Origin: Terriglobales bacterium
Lineage (GTDB): Bacteria > Acidobacteriota > Terriglobia > Terriglobales > Acidobacteriaceae
NCBI GenBank assembly: GCA_035573675.1
Contig: DATMAB010000024.1
Coordinates: forward strand, 1-64,000
Direction of reading: 5' to 3'
DNA length: 64,000 nt
In this document: positions 15,168-18,741 of the stretch, piece by piece
Layout of the letters: each line of letters starts with the position of its first letter
How positions within the stretch are numbered: position 1 is the first letter of the stretch
Program-made: the position numbers and the translations under genes
The notes under the pieces: model-generated
Told to the model about the DNA's origin: nothing
The model's database searches: none
What the model saw: only the letters and a program-made list of their open reading frames with translations

Positions 15168-16406
15168 TCAGCTCATCCACACTAAAACCAACGTGAGCAG
15201 CGCAGTTCCACCGGCCGTGACCCAGGCGACCCCGTTATACAGGCGCGAGTTGACGTGATTCCCCATTAGGTCTTTCTTGTTCACCAGCTTGATCATGAAG
15301 AAGAGCACAAAGGGCAGCAGCACGCCGTTCACGACCTGCGAGAGAACCGTGATTTTCAGCAGGGGAAAGTCGGGCCAGAGGATCACACCCGCGCCGGCTA
15401 CGATCAGGGCAGTGTAGAGCCAGTAGAAGGCGGGCGCTTCCGAGAACTTTTTGTCGATGCCGGATTCCAGACCCAGCCCCTCGCACACGGTATAGGCGGT
15501 GGAGAGCGGCAGGATCGAGGCCGCGAACAACGAGGCGTTGAACAAGCCGAAGGCGAACAGGATGGAGGCGTACTTGCCGGCCAGCGGGCGCAGGGCGTAG
15601 GCGGCGTCGGCGGCGTCGTGGATCTCGGTATGGCCCGCCTGATAGAGCGCCGCGCACGCGATCACAATGAACCCGGCGACGATCGGAGCCACGATGGCGC
15701 CGACAATCACGTCGATCCTGGCCAGTTTGTAGGTGCGCACAGTCACGCCTTTCTCCACGACCGAGGCTTGCAGGTAGAACATCTGCCAGGGAGCGATGGT
15801 GGCGCCGATCATGGCGGTGACCATGTAGAGATATCCGGCATCCGTGAAGGGCATGCGGGTGGGCCGGGGCACAGTGCTGACCAGCGCCTCCAGCCAATGC
15901 GGGCGCGAGAGGACGGCGGCTCCGATGTAAGCAACATAGAAGAAGACCGCAACTAGGAAGATCTTCTCCACACTCTTGTACGTGCCCTTGACGACCAGCA
16001 GCCATACCAAGAGGGCCGCGCCTGGAACTGAAATCCACTTCGGGACGTCGAAGAGCTCAAGGCTGGAGGCCACGCCGGCGAACTCGGCCACCACGTTGCC
16101 GAAATTGGTGACCACCAGGGCGAGCATCATCAGGAAGGTGAGGCGCAGCCCGAACTCCTCGCGAACCAAATCGCTCAGACCTTTGCCCGTGACCGCGCCC
16201 ATACGGGCCGCCATCTCCTGAATGACCACCAGCGCGATGATCATGGGCACGATGGTCCACAGCAACTGGTAGCCGTAGCGCGCCCCGGCGAACGAGTAGG
16301 TGTAGATGCCGCCGGCATCGTTGTCCACGTTGGAGGTGATGAAGCCTGGTCCTACGACTGCAAAGAACAGCAGGATCCGGGTCTTCCAGAGTTTGAGCCA
16401 TCGCAT
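15168..16406 (-). CDS. NRAMP-related divalent cation transporter with altered metal site
   Basis: 412 aa with about 11 hydrophobic helices; SLC11/NRAMP family from VGPGFITSNV and the overall helix pattern. The metal-binding DPGN of canonical Mn/Fe carriers is replaced by DNDAGG (residues 28-33), and the helix-6 MPH region reads IAPWQ (204-208), so the methionine ligand is lost. Such changes are known in NRAMP-related magnesium transporters, which take hydrated Mg2+. The upstream gene encodes a soluble MgtE-N/CBS protein in the same direction (72-bp gap), supporting Mg2+ as substrate; this is inference. Confidence 0.88.
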   Translation of the reverse strand: MRWLKLWKTRILLFFAVVGPGFITSNVDNDAGGIYTYSFAGARYGYQLLWTIVPMIIALVVIQEMAARMGAVTGKGLSDLVREEFGLRLTFLMMLALVVTNFGNVVAEFAGVASSLELFDVPKWISVPGAALLVWLLVVKGTYKSVEKIFLVAVFFYVAYIGAAVLSRPHWLEALVSTVPRPTRMPFTDAGYLYMVTAMIGATIAPWQMFYLQASVVEKGVTVRTYKLARIDVIVGAIVAPIVAGFIVIACAALYQAGHTEIHDAADAAYALRPLAGKYASILFAFGLFNASLFAASILPLSTAYTVCEGLGLESGIDKKFSEAPAFYWLYTALIVAGAGVILWPDFPLLKITVLSQVVNGVLLPFVLFFMIKLVNKKDLMGNHVNSRLYNGVAWVTAGGTALLTLVLVWMS

Positions 16407-16478
16407 TGGAACTTCCGCTACTCAAGAGAAGTCACAGAATAAACGCGGCGGGGAGAACAGGCCAGAAGAAAGCGCCTT

Positions 16479-17720
16479 TCAAAGCTTGGCCCGCATCAGC
16501 GTGATGACGTCGTCCGCCGTGATGACGCCTGTGAGACTGCCGTTCTCATCCACCACCGGCAGGCTGAGCAGGTTGTACTTGTCGAAGAGGGCGAAAATCT
16601 CCTTTTCCTTGGCCCCCGCCGGACAGGCCACCGGCTCGACCATCAATTGGCCCAGTTCGGCGTTGGGCGGGGCCAGCACCAGGCGAGCCAGCGGGACCAC
16701 CCCCAGCAGCTTCCGCGCCTGCCCGACCACGTAGATGGCGCTCAGGGTCTCGATGCCGCCTTCGAAGTGGCGCAGAAGTTCGATGGCGTCATACACGCGC
16801 GCCGTGCGCGGCATGGCGACGAACTCGGTCGTCATGTGGCCCGCAGCGGTATCTTCTTCGAACTGCAGAAGCTCGCTGACGTCCTGGCGCTCGTAGGGTG
16901 CCATTTCCTCCAGGATCACTTCGCTGGTTTCCTCGGGGAGGTCCTTCAGCAAGTTGGCGGCGGCATCCGGGTTCATCTCCTCGACGATGTCGGCGGCACG
17001 GTCCGAGTCCAGCGACTCGACGACCGAGATCTGCAGCTTGGGATCGAGTTCTTCCAGAGCCTCAGCGGCTACTTCTTCATCGAGCGTCTCGAAGACCGCT
17101 TCGCGCTCTGCGGGCGAGAGTTCCTCGACGATGTCGGCGATGTCGGCGGGATGCAGCCGGCCCAGGCGGTCGTGCGAGATCTTCAGCTTCACGCGGCGGG
17201 CCGGATCGGTTTCAATCAGGTCTACGAAGTCCCAGGGAATGACCCGCGGCGGGATGCGCGCCACCAGGCGTTCCACCAGCGGCGCCGGGACCACGCCGCG
17301 CAGCAGGCGACGCACGGCGCCGCGCGCACCCACATCCACTTCCGCAATGCGCAGCAGCAGCCCGCCGTTCGCCGGCTTTTGCTCCAGGTCCACGTCGTTC
17401 ACGCGCACCACCTTGCGCCCGTGCACGTCGATGATCTGCTGGTCGAGCAGGTCGCGGTCCAGCAGCAGCATGCCTTCGCTTTCCGCGAACACCGGCCAAT
17501 CGGCGGAAGGCAGAGCCGCGCGGACACGTCCCGGCCCGACCGCTGCGATGCCCTGCCGAGGCAGCAGCCGGTCGCCTTCGGAAGTGCGCACCACCAGGCC
17601 GTGGATGCGCGAGCGGTCCTCCTGCGGGCAGATGGCCACCTCGCGCACACGTCCGTGCAGCGTGCCGGCGGGTTCCTCCACCGGCACCCCGAGGATCTCG
17701 GAAAGCGCCAGAGGTGCCAT
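16479..17720 (-). CDS. Soluble PRC-barrel / MgtE-N / CBS-pair protein
   Basis: 413 aa, no membrane segment. Residues about 1-170 look like two PRC-barrel-type beta units (GRVREVAICP, QQIIDVHGRKVVRVNDV). Residues about 185-275 form an MgtE N-terminal helical superhelix (HPADIADIVEELSPAEREAVFETLDEE, SDRAADIVEEMNPDAAANLL). Residues about 285-410 are a CBS pair (GHMTTEFVAMPRTARVYDAIELL, LPVVDENGSLTGVITADDVI). In MgtE these cytosolic domains sense Mg2+ and gate the channel; here the channel domain is absent and the neighbour is a NRAMP transporter. Likely a trans-acting Mg2+ sensor for it. Confidence 0.88.
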   Translation of the reverse strand: MAPLALSEILGVPVEEPAGTLHGRVREVAICPQEDRSRIHGLVVRTSEGDRLLPRQGIAAVGPGRVRAALPSADWPVFAESEGMLLLDRDLLDQQIIDVHGRKVVRVNDVDLEQKPANGGLLLRIAEVDVGARGAVRRLLRGVVPAPLVERLVARIPPRVIPWDFVDLIETDPARRVKLKISHDRLGRLHPADIADIVEELSPAEREAVFETLDEEVAAEALEELDPKLQISVVESLDSDRAADIVEEMNPDAAANLLKDLPEETSEVILEEMAPYERQDVSELLQFEEDTAAGHMTTEFVAMPRTARVYDAIELLRHFEGGIETLSAIYVVGQARKLLGVVPLARLVLAPPNAELGQLMVEPVACPAGAKEKEIFALFDKYNLLSLPVVDENGSLTGVITADDVITLMRAKL

Positions 17721-17947: not shown

Positions 17948-18397
17948 ATTCTGGAAAAAACCGACGAGCGCGTCACCTACACGCTGGACTCGACTCTCGA
18001 CAGCGTGAACACGGCCGAAACGGCGGCCGCGCGCATCGCTGCCAAGGTCGGCTTTGACGGCGAGAGTTGTGACCGCATCGCTATGGCGGTGCGCGAAGCG
18101 ACGGTCAACGCGGTGCTCCACGGCAACGCGTACGACCCTAAGAAGAAGGTCACGGTGTCTTATGAGAATACCGGCGGCCGCCTGACCATCCGGGTGGCCG
18201 ACCAGGGCAAGGGGCTGGACCCCGGCAACATCCCCGACCCCCTGAAACCGGAGAACCTGCTGAAGACGTCGGGCCGGGGCATTTTCTTGATGCGCGCATT
18301 CATGGATGAAGTGAATTTCCGGGATCTGAGCCCGGGAACCGAGATTACGCTGGTCAAACAGGTCAGCCAGGCGGAAGGCAAGGAGGAATCCAAGTGA
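17948..18397 (+). CDS. RsbW-like anti-sigma factor / serine kinase (GHKL ATPase)
   Basis: About 149 aa if started at 17948. GHKL ATPase fold: the N-box is [16 protein letters not shown], the G1 box is [11 protein letters not shown] and the G2 box is [14 protein letters not shown]. RsbW-type proteins hold a sigma factor and phosphorylate their antagonist, the STAS protein encoded next. The first in-frame ATG/GTG/TTG is GTG 18005, but starting there would delete the first beta-strand ([12 protein letters not shown]), which is typical of the family. The frame is open back to 17891 with no ATG, GTG or TTG; ATT 17948 or CTG 17951, 7-10 nt after GGCAGG, are the best candidates. Stop overlaps the next start. 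Confidence 0.85.
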
Positions 18398-18741
18398 GCA
18401 TGAAAGCCAGCACGCGGCAGTTGGACGGCATCACGGTGGTGGACTTCAGTGGTCGCATCACGCTGGGCGAAGGCAGCGTAGTGCTGCGCGACACCATCCG
18501 CGACCTGCTCAGCAAAGGCAGCAAGAAGATCCTGCTGAACCTGGGCGATGTCACCTACATCGACAGCTCGGGCATCGGGGAGCTGGTCAGCGCCTACACC
18601 ACGGTGCGCAACGGCGGGGGCGAGCTCAAGCTGCTCAACCTCACCAAGAAGGTGCACGACCTGCTGCAGATCACCAAGCTCTACACCGTCTTCGATATCA
18701 AGGACGACGAGGCAACGGCCATCGCCTCCTTCTCGAAGTAG
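18394..18741 (+). CDS. RsbV-like anti-anti-sigma factor (STAS domain)
   Basis: 115 aa STAS protein. [31 protein letters not shown] (the phosphorylatable Ser sits in DSSGIGEL) and [19 protein letters not shown] are diagnostic. Unphosphorylated STAS protein binds the RsbW-type kinase and frees its sigma factor. The GTG start overlaps the previous stop (GTGA), so the kinase and antagonist are translationally coupled. No sigma factor or PP2C phosphatase gene is adjacent. A strong hairpin follows the stop. Confidence 0.9.

What the first reader, a model, noticed from the sequence alone, without database searches (positions are those of the whole stretch)
15168..17720. NRAMP transporter without DPGN paired with a stand-alone MgtE-N/CBS protein
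The transporter has DNDAGG and APWQ in place of DPGN and MPH, as expected for magnesium rather than manganese transport. The upstream soluble protein has the Mg2+-sensing half of MgtE but no channel, fused to PRC-barrel-like units. Together they suggest a two-component Mg2+ uptake system in which a cytosolic sensor gates a NRAMP carrier in trans.
Basis: partly seen in the sequence, partly recalled or inferred. Interest (0 to 1): 0.72.

Follow-up and report, generated by a model that had tools for sequence, protein, structure and literature searches.

The report
NRMT metal carrier with MgtE-like sensor
A soil bacterium carries a two-gene metal-uptake unit (a membrane carrier plus a free-standing MgtE-type metal sensor) of a kind already described in 2014, but this copy lacks a side chain that a studied relative needs for magnesium, so it may not be a magnesium importer.

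Summary
In detail: 15168-16406(-) is an NRMT-branch Nramp (DAGG / GATIAPW); 16479-17720(-) is a soluble PRC-like + MgtE_N + CBS-pair protein. The pairing and the feedback idea are in print: Shin et al. 2014 (PMC4072509) named NrmT, found the MgtE-like gene beside most members, and tested an Acidobacterium pair (partial Mg rescue, full Mn rescue, no gain from the MgtE-like protein).

New here: (1) In 297 Acidobacteriota genomes both genes occur in the same 91 (limits set after seeing the tables), 24 times unlinked, which supports a partnership. (2) 'Magnesium rather than manganese' is doubtful for this copy: it has Ala where EleNRMT has Thr224, and T224A in EleNRMT leaves no detectable Mg2+ transport but spares Mn2+. 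Of 135 genomes 125 have Thr, 10 Ala. (3) The sensor has lost MgtE's plug helix and all six ATP-contact residues; in this genus it has Asn where 140 of 149 aligned sensors have Asp. (4) Four of 33 scanned relatives' loci carry an M-box riboswitch before the operon; this genome has none. A link of Ala-type carriers with CorA, strong among near relatives, failed in the wider sample. Gating in trans is not demonstrated.

The parts
15168..16406 (-). NRMT-branch Nramp carrier, 412 aa
   Evidence: Pfam Nramp 329 bits; EleNRMT 7qia 359 bits; model matches 7qia with TM-score 0.86
16308..16319 (-). TM1 motif D30-A-G-G33 (canonical DPGN)
   Evidence: D30 aligns with EleNRMT D55; D30 and G33 invariant in 37 aligned carriers
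15786..15806 (-). TM6 motif G201-A-T-I-A-P-W207; Ala202 (15801-15803) stands where EleNRMT has Thr224
   Evidence: alignment; 125 Thr against 10 Ala among 135 genomes
16479..17720 (-). soluble sensor-like protein, 413 aa
   Evidence: no hydrophobic segment; in the same 91 of 297 genomes as the carrier
17226..17720 (-). N-terminal half with two beta-rich, PRC-like units (about residues 1-80 and 84-165)
   Evidence: strands in the model; PRC 18.7 bits at residues 88-114, sub-threshold, 57 of 66 relatives at E <= 0.01; the fold of the first unit was not tested on its own
16851..17156 (-). MgtE_N domain (residues 189-290), with E220, D252 and N256 at the places of T. thermophilus MgtE E59, D91 and D95
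   Evidence: 97 bits; site letters
16482..16850 (-). CBS pair (residues 291-413); ends without the MgtE plug helix

Best explanation
A two-gene divalent-metal uptake unit of the NrmT kind. The carrier is an NRMT-branch, LeuT-fold transporter (shown by sequence and model). The partner is the cytosolic half of MgtE on an added PRC-like half (shown). Most likely it dimerises through its CBS pair, closes when cytosolic metal binds between its MgtE_N and CBS domains, and in that state docks on the carrier's cytosolic face through the PRC-like units and throttles uptake (all inferred). In most relatives the carried ion is probably Mg2+ (inferred from the Thr pocket and from M-box leaders in some). 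In this genus the carrier has lost the Thr that EleNRMT needs for Mg2+, so here it more likely carries Mn2+, or Mg2+ only poorly (inferred from one homologue's mutant).
For: Same 91 of 297 genomes hold both genes, 22 on different contigs and 2 far apart on one contig, so it is not only shared transport by an operon. Sensor model matches MgtE cytosolic domain 2yvy, Z 20.1 over 236 residues. Equivalents of MgtE E59, D91 and D247 are kept (that these bind Mg2+ is recalled). M-box just upstream of the sensor in L048, L054, L056, L084. Ala at the EleNRMT T224 position and loss of Mg2+ but not Mn2+ transport in EleNRMT T224A. A. capsulatum pair prefers Mn. Both genes under purifying selection.
Against: Co-expression of the A. 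capsulatum MgtE-like protein did not change Mg rescue, and C. acetobutylicum carriers worked without it. The ATP-contact residues, the plug helix and most recalled Mg sites of MgtE are gone, and N256 replaces a conserved Asp, so this sensor may no longer respond. The genome already has a canonical Nramp with DPGN/ATVMP, so a second Mn importer would be redundant. The ion is judged from one mutant of a protein about 48% identical. Whether A. capsulatum ACP2977 itself has Ala or Thr could not be read. 19 of 71 named loci show a sensor without an NRMT in the stretch held.
Confidence: 0.45

Rival explanations
1. One reading: a Mg2+ importer gated in trans by its Mg2+ sensor in this genome too, with Ala202 tolerated (for example through backbone and water-mediated coordination).
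For: NRMT branch, partner with MgtE's sensing half. M-box leaders in 4 of 33 related loci. EleNRMT paper places Mg2+ mostly through water and the backbone carbonyl of Thr224 (passage). No MgtE channel in the genome.
Against: EleNRMT T224A has no detectable Mg2+ transport. No M-box in this genome. The genome has a full-length CorA as an alternative Mg importer. A. capsulatum result.
Confidence: 0.3
2. The MgtE-like protein does not gate the carrier; it acts elsewhere (a chaperone or buffer, or a regulator of another target) and is co-inherited because both serve the same metal.
For: Sensor and carrier are unlinked in 24 of 91 genomes. Shin et al. also considered a chaperone role and saw no effect of co-expression. 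The plug helix that transmits the signal in MgtE is absent.
Against: No genome of 297 keeps one without the other; in 61 near relatives 4 are discordant, all of them under 90% complete.
Confidence: 0.2

Closest known systems
NrmT with adjacent MgtE-like gene (Shin et al. 2014, PMC4072509), including A. capsulatum ACP2976/ACP2977
   Same: Same two genes, same order in A. capsulatum (MgtE-like gene upstream), same phylum, no M-box at this locus
   Different: TM6 Ala here, as in 10 of 135 genomes; ACP2977's residue was not read. Asn256 in the sensor. The PRC-like half is not mentioned in the passages seen.
EleNRMT (SLC11/NRAMP family; PMC8806188; PDB 7qia)
   Same: Best sequence and structure match; D55, E133 and Q379 equivalents kept
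   Different: Thr224 is Ala202 here
MgtE cytosolic domain (T. thermophilus, 2yvy; PMC5529423, PMC8104411)
   Same: MgtE_N plus CBS pair, Z 20.1
   Different: No channel, no plug helix, added PRC-like half, six of six ATP-contact residues replaced in the window protein

Membership tests
Nramp (Pfam PF01566) | match over the curated cut-off | tested here: met
   329 bits, cut-off 29.8
NRMT branch | closest to EleNRMT, away from canonical Nramps | tested here: met
   359 bits against 97 for the next chain; TM-score 0.86 against at most 0.80
NRMT branch | binding-site signature DxxG on TM1 and TxxA/T on TM6 (PMC8806188, passages) | tested here: inconclusive
   DxxG met (D30-A-G-G33); TM6 reads AxxA instead of TxxA/T. 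The branch placement stands, the ion prediction does not follow
NRMT branch | transports Mg2+ | not testable with these tools
   no transport assay
NrmT/MgtE-like gene pair | MgtE-like soluble gene beside the carrier | tested here: met
   72 bp upstream, same strand
NrmT/MgtE-like gene pair | sensor regulates the carrier | not testable with these tools
   published co-expression test showed no effect on Mg rescue
MgtE channel | MgtE transmembrane domain | tested here: not met
   no hydrophobic segment; no PF01769 match in the genome
MgtE cytosolic sensor | MgtE_N + CBS-pair fold | tested here: met
MgtE cytosolic sensor | ATP-contact residues Y170, R187, D188, N203, V207, F227 (PMC5529423, passages) | tested here: not met
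   A, A, R, V, A, L in the window protein

The most novel reading that the evidence does not exclude
A small set of NRMT carriers has naturally made the EleNRMT T224A change, about three times on the tree, and so moved from Mg2+ towards Mn2+ while keeping the MgtE-type sensor: a magnesium-type sensor would then gate a manganese carrier and set the cell's Mg:Mn balance. In this genus the sensor has changed as well, at a highly conserved acidic position (N256).
Probability: 0.22. Interest if true: 0.62.

Novelty: new member of a known kind. Interest (0 to 1): 0.36.

Why it matters
It corrects a tempting inference: an Nramp without DPGN/MPH beside an MgtE half is not by itself evidence of magnesium transport. 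The strict co-occurrence strengthens a 2014 proposal for which the searches here found no follow-up on the MgtE-like partner, and the natural Thr/Ala split among otherwise similar pairs offers a clean comparison for asking which ion the carrier moves and what the sensor reads.

Tried and rejected
CorA association. In the near relatives with a readable carrier, 7 of 8 Ala-type and 4 of 45 Thr-type genomes have a full-length CorA (Fisher p 1.6e-5; adding genomes with a second, MgtE-like match, 8 of 8 and 7 of 45, p 7.3e-6). In the phylum sample it is 1 of 3 and 58 of 88 (p 0.28), in the union 7 of 10 and 61 of 125 (p 0.33), with only 2 to 3 independent pairs on the tree. Not claimed. CorA was counted at E <= 1e-40; weaker, partial matches (G016, G054 and G058; G054, G062, G202, G225, G239 and G256) were left out. 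G171 is Ala-type with no CorA; G290 is Ala-type with no CorA but has a second, Thr-type carrier.

Other Mg importers of this genome: a P-type ATPase frame of 933 aa matches the Mg-ATPase model at 230 and 195 bits, under its cut-off of 610.75; its ion was not settled.

Riboswitch here: no M-box in the genome; near the operon, at E <= 10, only two weak matches to unrelated families.

Fusion of sensor and carrier: two long open frames (G306, G185) were compared by hand with the sensor's frame and differ from it; no systematic search was made.

Mg-site bookkeeping: the Mg2+-site residues of T. thermophilus MgtE (E59, D91, D95, D214, E216, D226, D247, D250) are recalled; searches gave no paper in which I could read them.

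Fold of the N-terminal half: the structure comparison covered mainly residues 255-413; a known fold is neither shown nor excluded for the first beta unit.

Literature: searches listed no paper later than 2014 on the MgtE-like partner; the library holds open-licence papers only.

The TM6 residue of A. capsulatum ACP2977 could not be read; no locus here bears that name.

Full report
What is there. On the minus strand a 413-aa soluble protein (16479-17720) is followed after 72 bp by a 412-aa membrane carrier (15168-16406); by their open frames the neighbours on both sides run the other way. The carrier is an NRMT: Pfam Nramp 329 bits, EleNRMT as best solved relative by sequence (359 bits, next 97) and by predicted structure (TM-score 0.86 by query length, other Nramps at most 0.80; model pLDDT 81, pTM 0.84). 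The soluble protein has MgtE_N and a CBS pair; its model (pLDDT 84, pTM 0.42, so domain placement is uncertain; residues 171-184 under 50) matches the MgtE cytosolic domain 2yvy with Z 20.1 over 236 residues, rmsd 3.6. Its N-terminal half holds two beta-rich units; the PRC match is sub-threshold in the window protein but 57 of 66 aligned relatives hit PRC at E <= 0.01. The genome, an Acidobacteriota judging by its nearest named relatives, has no MgtE channel domain, one CorA, and one other Nramp, with canonical DPGN and ATVMP motifs.

Already described. Shin et al. 2014 (PMC4072509; passages seen) defined NrmT, found a gene like the MgtE cytosolic domain near most members, suggested cytoplasmic feedback or a chaperone role, and noted that many such genes lie under Mg riboswitches. 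They tested the A. capsulatum pair ACP2976/ACP2977: a strain without Mg importers was rescued only with low millimolar Mg, co-expression of the MgtE-like protein did not improve this, and a Mn-transport defect was fully rescued.

Co-occurrence. In 297 Acidobacteriota genomes (291 of them at least 90% complete and at most 5% contaminated) I counted carrier rows of at least 216 bits and sensor rows whose match begins at query residue 80 or earlier. These limits were set after seeing the tables, and both tables were cut at their weak end. The same 91 genomes have both; none has one alone. Forty-three pairs are within 600 bp on one strand (29 sensor first, 14 carrier first), 24 within 8 kb, 2 far apart on one contig, 22 on different contigs. 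By my reading, 11 families hold genomes with both and genomes with neither. Among the 61 near relatives, counted by hand have both, 1 only the carrier (G010, 88% complete), 3 only the sensor (G025, G046, G048; 73 to 82% complete) and 4 neither. Of the 80 loci kept from 159 relatives in named genome contigs, 71 have at least 1500 nt after the sensor: 52 show an NRMT downstream on the same strand (47 within 600 nt) and 19 do not within the stretch held.

Magnesium link in relatives. M-box riboswitches (114 to 120 bits, gathering score 44) stand just upstream of the sensor in L048, L054, L056 and L084, 4 of 33 loci scanned. This genome has none.

The pocket. EleNRMT D55, E133 and Q379 correspond to D30, E108 and Q357, all invariant in 37 aligned carriers. 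EleNRMT T224 corresponds to A202. In EleNRMT the T224A mutant has no detectable Mg2+ transport and still carries Mn2+, with an at least two-fold higher Km (PMC8806188, section 10 read). Of 135 genomes with a readable main carrier, 125 have Thr and 10 Ala (G000, G001, G002, G008, G016, G024, G030, G056, G171, G290). The tree of 120 rows, 9 of them Ala, needs three changes, two of them forced by well-supported branches. G290 has a second, tandem copy with Thr. The window carrier also has Q208-M209 where 122 of 122 Thr-type rows have M-Q; its congener G001 has M-Q (rows are loci, some from the same genome).

The sensor's sites. T. thermophilus MgtE numbering was fixed by six ATP-contact residues named in PMC5529423 (passages), which all fell on the right letters. 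All six are replaced in the window protein. Across 149 aligned sensors the MgtE letter survives in some rows (Y170 in 30, R187 in 32, F227 in 7), so the loss is not uniform. Of the Mg-site residues (recalled), E59, D91 and D247 are kept here as E220, D252 and D404 (in the 149: E 93 or D 29, D 114, D 124). D226 is Asn in 124; D214, E216 and D250 are mostly changed; the plug helix is missing. The D95 place is Asp in 140 of 149 but Asn256 here and in G001, and in no other row. So the acidic site between MgtE_N and CBS survives in part, while the nucleotide site and the channel-facing parts are gone: the sensor may still close on metal, but not by MgtE's plug mechanism. This last step is inference.

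Alternative importers. Ala-type carriers looked tied to CorA among near relatives, but the wider sample does not bear this out (numbers under Tried and rejected).

Verdict. A well-conserved member of a known two-gene uptake unit, with an unusual pocket that makes the claimed ion doubtful. The partnership is better supported than before; the ion and the gating are not shown.

Noticed in passing
window 15780-15785 (minus strand, carrier residues 208-209): The window carrier reads Q-M where 122 of 122 Thr-type rows and its congener G001 read M-Q, right after the TM6 metal motif. Real change or assembly fault not settled.
   Followed up: partly
L229 and L268 (genome G290, contig C4): Tandem NRMT copies, one Ala-type (GATIAPW) and one Thr-type (GTTITPW).
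   Followed up: no
L164-L177: A more distant NRMT group, 34 to 38% identical to the window carrier, with the carrier gene before the sensor gene and a sensor match that mostly begins after residue 50.
   Followed up: partly
L190, L193, L198, L199, L201, L202; L196, L197: Further Nramp-like groups in the same phylum with other TM1/TM6 motifs (DDDPSG[IV] with GT[TS]ISPY; DNDAGAV with GTTIAPW).
   Followed up: no
L038, L050, L068, L069, L074, L077, L078, L079, L085, L086, L098, L101, L104, L109, L111: Sensor gene with no NRMT in the 5000 nt that follow it; what lies there instead was not examined.
   Followed up: no
window 16851-17156: The MgtE_N part also resembles FliG middle domain weakly; 64 of 66 aligned sensors match FliG_M at E <= 0.01.
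   Followed up: no
L067: Record titled Bifidobacterium breve MAG, but its NRMT falls among acidobacterial ones in the tree; probably a mislabelled bin.
   Followed up: no
window 18005-18741 (+): Two small genes that read like an anti-sigma kinase and a STAS antagonist run divergently from the sensor (named by eye, no family search).
   Followed up: no
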